A stretch of 43,246 nucleotides of DNA from the NCBI GenBank assembly GCA_021808985.1, contig JAKBAQ010000002.1, forward strand, positions 1 through 43,246, given 5' to 3'. This DNA comes from Pseudomonadota bacterium. GTDB taxonomy: Bacteria; Pseudomonadota; Alphaproteobacteria; Acetobacterales; Acetobacteraceae. The notes under the pieces are model-generated. The model was given only the letters and a program-made list of their open reading frames with translations. It ran no database searches and had not been told where the DNA came from. The number at the start of each line of letters is the position of its first letter. Within the stretch, counting starts at the first letter, position 1. Made by a program: the position numbers and the translations under genes. Positions 1,887-11,728 of this stretch are shown here, piece by piece.

Positions 1887-1908
1887 AATGGTCGGAGTGA
1901 GAGGATTC
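1887..1908. repeat. att-like direct repeat, distal copy
   Basis: Identical to 3473-3494; reverse complement GAATCCTCTCACTCCGACCATT matches the tRNA-Pro 3' end including CCA. Confidence 0.9.
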
Positions 1909-1952
1909 TATTAACCTACTAGAAAACAAAGATAATAAATACTATATCTATC

Positions 1953-1970
1953 TGCACGGGTTTTGCACAG
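1953..1970 (+). repeat. Arm-type-like repeat pair (TGCACGGGTTTTGCACAG)
   Basis: Two TGCAC half-sites 11 bp apart; same architecture as 2013-2030 and 3400-3417. Confidence 0.55.
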
Positions 1971-2012
1971 CATTTGTGCAGCTAGGAATATCAATAACTT
2001 ATATTCGCGGCC

Positions 2013-2030
2013 TACACGAATTCTACACAG
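2013..2030 (+). repeat. Arm-type-like repeat pair (TACACGAATTCTACACAG)
   Basis: Two TACAC half-sites 11 bp apart, ending ACACAG. Confidence 0.55.
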
Positions 2031-2043
2031 TGGAGTTTGAACC

Positions 2044-2307
2044 GTGGCGTTCATAACCGACAACGAGGAGTTAAAGCCCGGCCTCATTATCTTCCGGCGT
2101 TGCGACATGGCACACCGCAATTTCTACTGCCCCATCAAACTTCTGAAAGAAGACCGCTACAAGACCGTCTCATTGTACACGGCGGACCGGGGAACGACGC
2201 GTGACCGTGCCTTCGATCAGGATGCGAACATCCGTTTTCGCCTCAAACACGACGTGCCGGTGTTCAACCGCCCCTTCCGGCAGGTAGCAGAAAGTCTATT
2301 TGAGTAG
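2044..2307 (+). pseudogene. Truncated tyrosine recombinase/integrase N-terminal fragment
   Basis: GTG-start 87-aa ORF ITDNEELKPGLIIFRRCDMAHRNFYCPIKLLKEDRYKTVSLYTADRGTTRDRAFDQDANIRFRLKHDVPVFNRPFRQVAE resembles the N-terminus of island integrases from memory; stops before any catalytic domain. Confidence 0.65.
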
Positions 2308-2329
2308 TCAGCGTGGATCGGGAAATATT

Positions 2330-3154
2330 ATGGTTTTGGCCGCAATCGATGTTTGGAACGCTGCAACTTTCGATGATGAACTTTCCTCGTTCCTAGCCGA
2401 TAATGCCGATCTCATCAGAAACTACATAACAACCGAGCGCGACATTTTTTTGTCTTACGAGCTTGGACGCAGGCCAGGCCGACCTCTACTGCGTCCAAAT
2501 AATCCTCACGCTTGTTCATTTCTCGCGCTTGAAGAGGCTGTCGGCAAGGAAATGTCATCACGAGTCGTCCGTGCTTGGCACTATACGCGGTTGACAGACA
2601 CAGAGCTGGAAACAATGCAGCGCGAAGGCATTCAATTGTCGACAGTAGCATCACTCCGGGCTCGGCTAGATGCTCTTGTTGCATCGGGGGTGCTATCCAC
2701 ACATGGGGCAGATAGCCTATTTTCTCAAAGCCCACTTAACCAGGGGAAATTGGAAATACGTTCGAACAAATTCTACATGGTGTCGCATCCAATAGCCATT
2801 GATGATGGTGACGTTGTGCCGCTGATGGCTCATTGGGGGGGAGAGGTCGTATCAATGTTGGTTGAAGACGCAGATTTACTTGCTCTTCTCTCATCTATTG
2901 GAAAGCCCCGTGTTCTTGAAATTGAGGCTCCTCTCTCCCTCTCTCAGCACAGCTATTCAGCGGCAGAAGCCGTGATCGCCACATTTAGCCGATCTTTAGG
3001 TTGCATTCCGGATAATCGCGGTTTTGACCTTTACATCAGCTCGCCCCTACCACCGAATGCTCTCAAGCGCGTACATGGTAATGACGATAACACTTTTTAT
3101 GTTTTGGGCCGCGGGTATCCAGCCGATTATGCCCATACCAATTCCGCCGATTGA
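2330..3154 (+). CDS. Uncharacterized islet cargo protein (~274 aa)
   Basis: Intact ORF (ORF track starts 2300; ATG at 2330 gives MVLAAIDVWN); contains RAWHYTRLTDTELETMQREGIQL, FYMVSHP and MAHWGGEV segments. Confidence 0.75.
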   Translation: MVLAAIDVWNAATFDDELSSFLADNADLIRNYITTERDIFLSYELGRRPGRPLLRPNNPHACSFLALEEAVGKEMSSRVVRAWHYTRLTDTELETMQREGIQLSTVASLRARLDALVASGVLSTHGADSLFSQSPLNQGKLEIRSNKFYMVSHPIAIDDGDVVPLMAHWGGEVVSMLVEDADLLALLSSIGKPRVLEIEAPLSLSQHSYSAAEAVIATFSRSLGCIPDNRGFDLYISSPLPPNALKRVHGNDDNTFYVLGRGYPADYAHTNSAD

Positions 3155-3399
3155 AAAGCGCTCACTGGAGAGTGATGGTTAGGAAAGATCCATCTAAAAA
3201 ATTAGACCAATGCAGCGATGCCATTCCCCGGCTCCCTGCTGGGTCTGTTGAAGCTTGTTGCGTGAGAACCAATTTGCTTTGAAAAATTTTTGCCGGTCAC
3301 TCAATCCTACGCTGGCAAATTCGCGAAGAATCGGCCCCATAATCGTCTTTAATGGTCCAAAGACCTGGGAACATTCACTGAAAAATCCGCAAATAATTC

Positions 3400-3417
3400 T
3401 GCACAACTCCTGCACAG
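3400..3417 (+). repeat. Arm-type-like repeat pair (TGCACAACTCCTGCACAG)
   Basis: Two TGCAC half-sites 11 bp apart, ending GCACAG, near the opposite element end. Confidence 0.55.
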
Positions 3418-3472
3418 GCAAATTTTAGATCAAATAACCATTATAAATCAATTTCTTGTAGACGATCGATAT

Positions 3473-3494
3473 AATGGTCGGAGTGAGAGGATTC
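3473..3494. repeat. att-like direct repeat, tRNA-proximal copy
   Basis: Identical to 1887-1908; lies in the T-arm/acceptor/CCA end of tRNA-Pro. Confidence 0.9.
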
Positions 3495-3552
3495 GAACCT
3501 CCGGCCCCTGCGTTCCGAACACAGTACTCTAACCAGGCTGAGCTACACTCCG
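3475..3552 (-). tRNA. tRNA-Pro (anticodon CGG), CCA encoded
   Basis: Reverse complement CGGAGTG TA GCTC AGCCTGGTTA GAGT A CTGTG TTCGGAA CGCAG GGGCC GGAGG TTCGAAT CCTCT CACTCCG ACCA; C1:G72 and A73. Confidence 0.93.
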
Positions 3553-8715: not shown

Positions 8716-9561
8716 ATGAGCCCGCATATCCGGACGGCACGGCGCAACCCACCCCACGCTTTACAGAAGGGTAACGGGATTCTAGGAATTTCCGGCCCGG
8801 CCGGTGCAAGCATGGCCCGTTTTTTCGCGGCGCCGGGCATGGAGGAACACACGGTGCCGGCAAACAGGCAGGATACGGCGCAGACATTCCCGGCGGGGGC
8901 GCCGGACCCGTGCCGCCCCGCCTATCTCTTGCAAGCCACTCTCCCGGCCAGCAAGAGATGGCAAAACCACCACGCGCGCCGCGCCCTCATCCTGGCGGCG
9001 GCCCGCCGTCTCATCAGTGATGCCGGGCTGGAAGGCGTATGCCTGCACTCCATCGCCAAATCCTGCGGCATCTCTGTCCCCACCATTTACAACATCGTCG
9101 GCAACCGCGCGCATGTTCTGGACGAATCCTCGGCTGAATGGGTGCACTGGCTGGCGCTCTCCGCCAGAAGCAACGCGCCGGCGGAAGGGCAGCTGTTGGC
9201 GATCCTGCTGGCCTTCTGGAACTCAGCGCTCCGCTTTCCGCAATATACGATGAAGGCGGTGAGAAACTCAGTCATGCCCGGCCTGCCGCTGCACCGCGCT
9301 TTCCGCGACGCCGGAAGCCTGGCGATCCTCGATCTCCTGGCCATCCTGAAGTCGCAGAACCTTCTGCGCGGGTCGGTCGACATAGAATCCTTCGCCTGGC
9401 ATGTCACACAATCAGTCCATGCCGGCGTGTGCGACTGGTGCCTCGCGCCCTACGAATCATTGCGCTTCGAGCGTAATTTCACCGAAGGGCCAGGGCTGAT
9501 GCTGCTCGGCGCCCTGCGCGGCCAAGCGGCAAGGCGCATCGAACAGGCTTTGGATGCCTGA
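8716..9561 (+). CDS. TetR/AcrR family transcriptional regulator
   Basis: N-terminal HTH region ARRALILAAARRLISDAGLEGVCLHSIAKSCGISVPTIYNIVGNRAHVLDE; true start may be downstream (e.g. 8812). Confidence 0.8.
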   Translation: MSPHIRTARRNPPHALQKGNGILGISGPAGASMARFFAAPGMEEHTVPANRQDTAQTFPAGAPDPCRPAYLLQATLPASKRWQNHHARRALILAAARRLISDAGLEGVCLHSIAKSCGISVPTIYNIVGNRAHVLDESSAEWVHWLALSARSNAPAEGQLLAILLAFWNSALRFPQYTMKAVRNSVMPGLPLHRAFRDAGSLAILDLLAILKSQNLLRGSVDIESFAWHVTQSVHAGVCDWCLAPYESLRFERNFTEGPGLMLLGALRGQAARRIEQALDA

Positions 9562-9592
9562 CAGGGCCACCCCCATTTTCCGGAGTTGAATC

Positions 9593-9946
9593 ATGTCTGA
9601 ACACAGTGTCACCATCTACTACAATCCCGCCTGCGGCACGTCGCGCAGCACATTGGCGATCATCCGCGACGCCGGCATTGAACCCGTGGTGATCGAATAT
9701 CTCAAAACCCCGCCCAGCCGGGACACTCTGGCGGTTCTCGCCAAACAGGTTGGCGGCGCGCGCACCTTGCTGCGGGAGAAGGACAGACTCGTCACGACAC
9801 TCGGCCTGGGCCCTGATATCCCGGATGATGCCATCCTTGACGCCATCGCCGCCCACCCGATTCTGCTCAACCGCCCCGTGGTGATTACCCACAAAGGCGC
9901 CAAAACCTGCCGCCCGGCGGAGACCGTGCTGGAACTGCTGCCTTGA
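9593..9946 (+). CDS. arsC: Arsenate reductase (glutaredoxin type)
   Basis: VTIYYNPACGTSRSTLAII active site and RPVVITHKGAKTCRPAETV C-terminus. Confidence 0.92.
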   Translation: MSEHSVTIYYNPACGTSRSTLAIIRDAGIEPVVIEYLKTPPSRDTLAVLAKQVGGARTLLREKDRLVTTLGLGPDIPDDAILDAIAAHPILLNRPVVITHKGAKTCRPAETVLELLP

Positions 9947-9970
9947 GCGCATCTGGCTAAGAGATTGTTT

Positions 9971-10133
9971 TAAAAGTTTTTTTAAAAAAATTAAGGATAA
10001 TTCTAAAAGTTTTTTTGGGGTTTGGCCTTTTTTTTACAAAAAAGGGCCAGAATCTTGGGAAGCTTTTTATAAACCCCCTCCAAACCCCGCGAGGCGGTGA
10101 GGCTGCGCTTGCCCGCACCCCGCACCGCCTCGC
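9971..10133. repeat. Structured intergenic repeat cluster
   Basis: taaaagttttttt direct repeat (9971-9983, 10004-10016); nested inverted repeats ggggtttgg/ccaaacccc (10017-10025/10080-10088), ggcctttttt.../aaaaaagggcc (10024-10048), gcgaggcggtg/caccgcctcgc (10089-10099/10123-10133). Confidence 0.7.
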
Positions 10134-10309
10134 CTCGCTCTCACTCTCTGCTCATTTGCTCACTTTGGTGTTACTTTTTGGTTTACAAGGTCAGAACAGC
10201 ATCCGCCGGTCGACAATTATCGCTGCTCACGGCGCCTGGATGCAGGCCGCCAACCCACGTAGCGGCATGTTTTCGCAAATCACCATGCCGTTCAGGCGCC
10301 AAGCATCGC

Positions 10310-10546
10310 TCAAACTCCCGATGACACAAGCCGCCCATCAGCCTGCAAGAAAACCGCCCCGCAAGCGCCAGCCCGCCATCTTTCTTGCGCAAAACCACCC
10401 CTTGCCGCAGCCCGCGCGGGCGGCGCAACCCGGCTGTTGCGGGCCATCTCCCACGCCAAGACTATAATTTCCCGCAACTGCGCCGCGCACACCAGAAACA
10501 TGCTGGCGCAAGCCGCCATCGAAGCCAGTCCAATCACGATGTTCAT
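10310..10546 (-). CDS. Hypothetical small protein with N-terminal hydrophobic segment
   Basis: 78-aa ORF MNIVIGLASMAACASMFLVCAAQL...; no recognised family. Confidence 0.25.
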   Translation of the reverse strand: MNIVIGLASMAACASMFLVCAAQLREIIVLAWEMARNSRVAPPARAAARGGFAQERWRAGACGAVFLQADGRLVSSGV

Positions 10547-10564
10547 GCCAATCTCCCTTTTTCC

Positions 10565-11728
10565 TTAAAACAAGCTCATCTGCGCCATCGCCGCGCGCGC
10601 CGCCGGTGCCGCGAACACCCCGCAATCCAGCTTCATCCGCTCCTGGTTCAGCCCCAGCCGCCCCACCACCCGCTCCAGCCGCTGTCCCAGCAGCTCAGCG
10701 TACGGCCCGCTGCCCTGAAAGCGCGTGTGGAAGTTCGGATCATTCAACGCCCCGGCCCGGCTTTGGCGGATCAGGCTGAGTACATGGCTGGCCCGCTCGG
10801 GCAGATGTTTTTGCAGCCAGTCCGCGAACAAATCCCCCAGCTCATGCGGCAGGCGCAGCAAAATCGAATGCGCGCTCCGCGCCCCGGCCTTTGCCGCCGC
10901 CTCCACGATGCTCTCCAGCTCCGCATCGTTCAGCCCTGGAATCATCGGTGAAGCCAGAACCCCCACCGGAATCGCCGCTTGCGCCAGCCCGGCAATCGCC
11001 GCCAGCCGCCGCGCCGGAGAGGCCGCGCGGGGTTCCATGGTCCGCGCCAGCACCGGCTCCAGCGTGGTGATGGACACATGCACCTGCACCAGATTTTTCA
11101 CCGCCATGCGGCTCAGAATATCCAGATCCCGCAACACGCCGGCTGATTTGGTGATAATGCTCACCGGATGATTGAACCGCTCCAGCACCTCCAGCAGGCT
11201 GCGCGTGATACCCAGCGTGCGTTCCACCGGCTGATACGGATCCGTGTTCGACCCCAGCACGATAACCCCCACCTTGTAGCCTGTTTTTGAGAGTTCCTTT
11301 TCCAGCAGGCGCGCCGCCTCCGGCTTGAAGACAATCCGCGTCTCGAAATCCAGCCCGGCGGAGAACCCCAGATACGCATGCGAGGGCCGCGCGAAACAAT
11401 AAATGCATCCATGCTCGCACCCGCGATACGGATTGACGCTGCGGTCAAAATTCAGATCCGGGCTGTCATTGCGGGAGATAACGCTCTTCGTCGCGTCGCG
11501 GATCAGCGTGGTCCGTGGCTGGCTTTCTTCCTCGGGCGCAGTCCAGCCATCGTCAAAAGCCTCCACCCGCGCATGCTCAAACCGATTCGGTGGGTTGCAG
11601 GCCGTGCCCCGGCCCTTCCAGACCCCATCCTTCACATCCTGCTTGATATGTAGCCGGGAAACCGCCGCCATGTTCCTGCTCCGTTCCGGCGACATTAAGT
11701 CATTCCGCCTCCGGCAAGTCAAGAACAA
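10565..11728 (-). CDS. PA0069-family radical SAM protein
   Basis: NPYRGCEHGCIYCFARPSHAYLG (CxxxCxxC) and VIVLGSNTDPYQPVERTLGITRSLLEVL. Confidence 0.9.
   Translation of the reverse strand: MFLTCRRRNDLMSPERSRNMAAVSRLHIKQDVKDGVWKGRGTACNPPNRFEHARVEAFDDGWTAPEEESQPRTTLIRDATKSVISRNDSPDLNFDRSVNPYRGCEHGCIYCFARPSHAYLGFSAGLDFETRIVFKPEAARLLEKELSKTGYKVGVIVLGSNTDPYQPVERTLGITRSLLEVLERFNHPVSIITKSAGVLRDLDILSRMAVKNLVQVHVSITTLEPVLARTMEPRAASPARRLAAIAGLAQAAIPVGVLASPMIPGLNDAELESIVEAAAKAGARSAHSILLRLPHELGDLFADWLQKHLPERASHVLSLIRQSRAGALNDPNFHTRFQGSGPYAELLGQRLERVVGRLGLNQERMKLDCGVFAAPAARAAMAQMSLF

What the first reader, a model, noticed from the sequence alone, without database searches (positions are those of the whole stretch)
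1887..3494. Minimal ~1.6-kb genomic islet inserted at tRNA-Pro(CGG)
A perfect 22-bp direct repeat (1887-1908 = 3473-3494) brackets AT-richer DNA. The right copy is the last 20 nt of tRNA-Pro, including CCA, plus 2 bp. This is the classic signature of tyrosine-integrase insertion into a tRNA 3' end. The element is unusually small and has no functional integrase, so it is either a decayed island or a non-autonomous islet mobilised in trans.
Basis: partly seen in the sequence, partly recalled or inferred. Interest (0 to 1): 0.75.

Follow-up and report, generated by a model that had tools for sequence, protein, structure and literature searches.

The report
Stripped-down mobile element at tRNA-Pro
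A 1.6-kb piece of foreign DNA sits at the end of a proline tRNA gene in an Acidocella-type bacterium; it is the shrunken remnant of a larger mobilizable element that has lost its integrase but kept both recombination ends and one intact-looking cargo gene, an ordinary kind of object that could be dissected here in unusual detail.

Summary
A perfect 22-bp repeat (1887-1908 = 3473-3494) brackets AT-rich DNA, and the right copy is the last 20 nt of an intact tRNA-Pro(CGG). About 25 congeneric genomes have the empty site, with the MFS gene beside a single tRNA end. The islet is an integrase-element remnant, not a chance repeat. ORF1 (2044-2307) is the N-terminal arm-binding domain of a tyrosine integrase; the core-binding and catalytic domains are gone. 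A motif model built only from arm sites of relatives finds exactly three sites in 43 kb: two beside attL, one beside attR. The closest full-length relative is a ~14.8-kb element in another genus of the family, in a tRNA-Gly 3' end, with intact integrase, relaxase, coupling protein and ArdC, and almost the same core-to-arm spacing. The islet therefore fits the published definition of a cis-mobilizable element (CIME), here a deleted derivative of an integrative mobilizable element. Its cargo, ORF2 (2330-3154), belongs to a widespread family without a Pfam entry on alphaproteobacterial mobile DNA; a resemblance to the ADP-ribosyltransferase fold is weak. No helper integrase was found in the host assembly. 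New member of a known kind.

The parts
1887..1908 (.). attL core: displaced copy of the last 20 nt of tRNA-Pro plus 2 bp
   Evidence: exact 22-bp repeat; the left flank is the chromosomal DNA seen at empty sites
1952..1970 (+). arm-type site pair 1, CTGCACGGGTTTTGCACAG, 43 bp from the attL core
   Evidence: 19.0 bits with a matrix trained on relatives only; the same position in relatives
2012..2030 (+). arm-type site pair 2, CTACACGAATTCTACACAG, just upstream of the int remnant
   Evidence: 23.0 bits; relatives have a pair at about this distance from the int start
2044..2307 (+). ORF1: N-terminal arm-binding domain of a tyrosine integrase, truncated where the core-binding domain starts
   Evidence: 57-69% identity to the N-termini of full-length integrases; domain limits in those; no significant trace of the remainder in the islet
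2330..3154 (+). ORF2: 274-aa cargo protein of a widespread family without a Pfam entry; ATG start supported by homologues
   Evidence: 51 genome, 4 viral and 19 plasmid relatives; no family match; confident AF2 model
3399..3417 (+). arm-type site pair 3 (right arm), CTGCACAACTCCTGCACAG, 55 bp from the attR core
   Evidence: 22.9 bits; third pair at the far end of the G613, G645 and G001 elements
3473..3494 (.). attR core, forming the 3' end of the restored tRNA-Pro
   Evidence: exact 22-bp repeat
3475..3552 (-). tRNA-Pro(CGG), the integration target, intact
   Evidence: ARAGORN; conserved between MFS and amidase genes in the genus

Best explanation
[quoted passage not shown] The ancestor carried attP with paired arm-type sites on both sides of a core equal to the last 20 nt of tRNA-Pro. 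Integrase recombined attP with the tRNA, which displaced the original 3' end to 1887-1908 and restored the tRNA with element DNA at 3473-3494. Later deletion removed the core-binding and catalytic parts of int and the transfer genes. What remains is the left end with two arm-site pairs, the int arm-binding domain, one cargo gene (ORF2), and the right arm with attR. Shown: repeat, empty site, int N-terminus, three arm sites, matching geometry in a full-length IME, absence of int catalytic sequence. Inferred: the order of events, that ORF2 was cargo of the ancestor rather than a later insertion, and present immobility for want of a helper. Whether a related integrase in trans could excise it is open.
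For: Empty sites in close relatives; islet absent from congeners; ORF1 aligns to the N-termini of full-length integrases in G013, G613, G612, G645; relatives-only matrix finds three arm-type sites in 43 kb, all in the islet, on both sides; G613 element has the same layout: core to pair 45 bp against 43, right pair to core 56 against 55, integrated at the same position of a tRNA-Gly 3' end, with relaxase, NikA/MobC-like protein, coupling protein and ArdC; GC drop.
Against: No relative carrying both this int and ORF2 was found, so the intermediate states are not seen. The pair spacing upstream of int is 60 bp here against 50 bp in relatives. The assembly is a draft of 289 contigs and about 93% complete, so a helper could be missed.
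Confidence: 0.88

Rival explanations
1. Active non-autonomous islet: a streamlined satellite that regularly moves in trans with integrases of related IMEs, ORF2 being its selected payload.
For: attL, attR and all three arm-site pairs are kept, and ORF2 is open with the conserved residues of its family.
Against: Only one copy was seen; no second genome in the genus has the islet, no related integrase elsewhere in the host, and no tRNA-Pro-targeting full-length relative was found.
Confidence: 0.08
2. Repurposed unit: ORF1 is kept as a DNA-binding repressor acting on the arm sites and controls ORF2.
For: ORF1 is open, has an SD-like sequence, and lies just downstream of two arm pairs; integrase represses its own promoter at attL in KplE1 (PMC2951348). 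Another copy (G017) is also cut just after this domain.
Against: ORF1 departs from 4 columns invariant in relatives, including R30P; pN/pS is not informative; no promoter above chance was found there on the plus strand.
Confidence: 0.06
3. Chance repeat or assembly artefact: the duplicate tRNA end and the AT-rich DNA are unrelated to an integrase element.
For: The contig comes from a fragmented draft, and tRNA ends can mislead assemblers.
Against: Empty sites, the int N-terminus, and three arm-type sites at the distances seen in a complete relative.
Confidence: 0.02

Closest known systems
CIME (cis-mobilizable element; definition read in PMC5704250)
   Same: Integration and transfer genes lost, attL and attR kept, at the 3' end of a tRNA gene.
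   Different: Much smaller than its relatives, keeps the integrase arm-binding domain and arm sites; mobilization not shown and no accreted partner element present.
IME of the G613/G645 type (unnamed here; relaxase, coupling protein, ArdC, tyrosine integrase)
   Same: Integrase N-terminus 57-69% identical, same arm-type motif, almost the same core-to-arm distances, same position within a tRNA 3' end in G613.
   Different: Those are ~15-22 kb with intact int and mobilization genes and lack ORF2; targets are tRNA-Gly or other sites, not tRNA-Pro.
KplE1 prophage attL/intS region (PMC2951348)
   Same: int starts next to attL at a tRNA, so that arm-type sites overlap the int promoter region.
   Different: intS is complete and its autoregulation was measured; here int is truncated and nothing was measured.
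SSV-type split ('suicidal') integrases of archaea (PMC8371274)
   Same: An N-terminal integrase fragment lies at one end of the integrated element.
   Different: There att lies inside int and a C-terminal fragment sits at the other end; here att is outside int and no C-terminal fragment was found.

Membership tests
CIME | attL and attR retained | tested here: met
   22-bp cores and arm-type sites at both ends
CIME | integration gene lost | tested here: met
   int reduced to ~84 N-terminal residues; catalytic part absent
CIME | transfer genes lost | tested here: met
   only ORF1 and ORF2 have homologues; neither matches a transfer family; G613 relative has relaxase and coupling protein
CIME | can be moved by a related element | not testable with these tools
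   needs an excision assay; no helper found in the host assembly
tRNA-integrated tyrosine-integrase element | direct repeat of the tRNA 3' end with an empty site in relatives | tested here: met
IME (autonomous) | own functional integrase and mobilization genes | tested here: not met
SSV-type split integrase element | att inside int, C-terminal fragment at the other end | tested here: not met
   no int sequence beyond residue ~84 in the islet
ADP-ribosyltransferase superfamily (ORF2) | fold similarity at a significant level | tested here: inconclusive
   Tpt1/KptA first in Foldseek, probability 0.95, E 0.04, TM 0.22-0.32
KptA/Tpt1 family (ORF2) | profile similarity to the family | tested here: not met
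   hhalign probability 0.3%, E 0.2

The most novel reading that the evidence does not exclude
The islet is a functional two-gene unit: the retained integrase arm-binding domain acts as a repressor on the arm sites upstream of it and so controls ORF2, a toxin- or defence-like protein, while the intact ends let passing IMEs carry the unit. A hint is that in genome G017 of the same genus another int of this family is also cut just after the arm-binding domain with its arm sites kept, and the G001 copy is frameshifted at residue 66.
Probability: 0.07. Interest if true: 0.65.

Novelty: new member of a known kind. Interest (0 to 1): 0.36.

Why it matters
It shows how far a tRNA-borne IME can be worn down while its recombination ends stay readable, and it gives a way to recognise such remnants: arm-type site models from full-length relatives. 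The same comparison outlines an apparently unnamed IME group in Acetobacteraceae, and a widespread protein family on mobile DNA without a Pfam entry as a candidate for functional tests.

Tried and rejected
SSV-type split integrase: rejected, att lies outside int and no C-terminal fragment was found. ORF1 as a family of its own: rejected, it matches the N-terminus of 405-487-aa integrases. Selection on ORF1 from pN/pS: uninformative, 0.29-0.46, like intact pairs; ORF1 departs from 4 otherwise invariant columns including R30P, not clearly more than intact relatives do. KptA membership of ORF2: no profile support. Direct repeats around ORF2 homologues: the ~1.58-kb spans in L072 and L108 are intergenic repeats in gene-dense DNA, not att sites as far as I can see. 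A 1.2-kb MFS-tRNA gap in G001 holds a sulfotransferase-like ORF and no att repeat. Phage and plasmid collections gave no match to ORF1, and phages none to the islet DNA or ORF2. The first genome-contig scan with ORF2 alone found nothing; the alignment found 51 loci. Four later scans of viral contigs got no answer from the server.

Full report
OBSERVATION. The repeat AATGGTCGGAGTGAGAGGATTC is exact at 1887-1908 and 3473-3494. tRNA-Pro(CGG) is 3475-3552 on the minus strand, so the right copy is its last 20 nt with CCA plus two bases. The 20-mer is present twice in the host assembly, both here, and once in most congeners. GC is 48% inside and 63% outside.

EMPTY SITE. The order MFS gene, tRNA-Pro, amidase is kept in the genus. 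Four close relatives (G009, G002, G022, G011) join MFS upstream DNA directly to one copy of the repeat, and about 25 relatives have 32-380 bp between MFS and tRNA. The islet DNA has no counterpart in the 37 other congeners beyond ~200-bp matches to the int N-terminus. The AA before TGG in attL is also present at empty sites of the close relatives, so the core shared by design may be only the 20 tRNA bases.

INTEGRASE REMNANT. ORF1 (2044-2307, GTG start) was invisible to Pfam, PHROGs, NCBIfam and PADLOC at useful scores. Translated searches across genomes showed it to be the first ~84 residues of a tyrosine integrase: 65% to a 405-aa protein of G013, and 69%, 61% and 57% to full-length proteins in three other genera, G613, G612 and G645. 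In two full-length proteins Pfam sees a SAM-like core-binding domain from residue 78-79 (just under its cut-off) and the catalytic domain from about 200. ORF1 thus stops where the second domain starts. No convincing trace of the rest was found in the islet.

ARM-TYPE SITES. Upstream of int, relatives carry two pairs of the form CTGCACAGnnnCTGCACAG, 11-bp period, 50 bp apart. I first noticed the pattern in the window by eye, so I tested it with a matrix trained on 11 sites of relatives only. In the 43-kb window, both strands, it gives 1952, 2012 and 3399 at 19.0, 23.0 and 22.9 bits; the next best is 8.9, and the maximum in 400 simulated islets is 13.6. One caveat: the register and length of the matrix were chosen after seeing the window.

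FULL-LENGTH RELATIVES. The same matrix finds a third pair far downstream in G613, G645 and G001. In G613 it lies 56 bp from a tRNA-Gly(GCC) 3' end, and the other end of the element has TGGAGCGGGtGAAGGGATT against TGGAGCGGGcGAAGGGATT. Distances in window and G613: core to first pair 43 and 45 bp; last pair to core 55 and 56 bp; the right ends also share flanking bases. The G613 element is about 14.8 kb and encodes a MobA/VirD2-type relaxase, a NikA/MobC-like protein, a TraG/VirD4-type coupling protein and ArdC; relaxase, coupling protein and ArdC recur in G645. In G001 a 50-bp repeat of the 5' end of an ABC-F-like gene, called ettA here from its N-terminal sequence and my own knowledge, marks both ends of a ~13-kb element. 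The G013, G017 and G612 copies also lie at this 5' end. The integrase group thus uses different targets, and the window is the only tRNA-Pro case seen.

SAME SITE, OTHER ISLET. G004 has an unrelated ~1.5-kb insertion at the same tRNA-Pro, with a decayed 50-bp copy of the tRNA end and no integrase, so this tRNA is a recurrent target in the genus.

CARGO. ORF2 (2330-3154) has 51 relatives in genome contigs, 4 in viral contigs and matches in 19 plasmid records, mostly Alphaproteobacteria. Conserved residues include H84, Y85, R87, E92, W169-G-G-E172, E197 and D233. No library names it. Neighbours vary: toxin-antitoxin-like genes, SIR2, TrlF-like ATPase, a terminase-like gene, and no conserved partner was seen. 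The AF2 model is confident (pLDDT 94.1, pTM 0.90). Foldseek ranks Tpt1/KptA first, but with E 0.04 and TM 0.2-0.3, and profile comparison does not support membership of that family. An ADP-ribosyltransferase-like role is therefore a lead only.

READING. The anatomy fits the published CIME definition. Integration, deletion and present immobility are inferred. No related int was detected elsewhere in the host assembly; its other tyrosine recombinases look XerC/D-like or P4-like by eye. Autoregulation of int at attL is demonstrated in KplE1 and makes a regulatory role of ORF1 conceivable, but nothing here shows it.

Noticed in passing
L038 (G004:C3) 8971-10582: A second, unrelated ~1.5-kb insertion without integrase at the same tRNA-Pro, bracketed by a 50-bp, 94% copy of the tRNA 3' half.
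   Followed up: partly
L044 (G013), L045 (G017), L046/L173 (G001), L157 (G612): Relatives of this integrase sit at the 5' end of an ettA-like ABC-F gene; in G001 a 50-bp repeat of that gene start marks both ends of a ~13-kb element.
   Followed up: partly
L045 10392-10625 (G017); L046 9034-9270 (G001): Two further copies of this int are broken near the end of the arm-binding domain (truncation in G017, frameshift at residue 66 in G001); why the break recurs there is unexplained.
   Followed up: partly
L157 500-1310 (G612): A CRISPR-like array of a ~32-bp repeat with ~66-bp period lies directly downstream of the full-length int.
   Followed up: no
L072 5704-7340; L108 149-1900: ORF2 homologues flanked by imperfect intergenic repeats (TGGAAACCGGYCTGCA...) about 1.58 kb apart in two MAGs; the repeats look like intergenic elements, function unknown.
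   Followed up: partly
L092 2178-3111: An ORF2 homologue starts 15 bp after the 3' end of tRNA-Arg(CCT) in a Phenylobacterium MAG; no repeated tRNA end on the short contig.
   Followed up: partly
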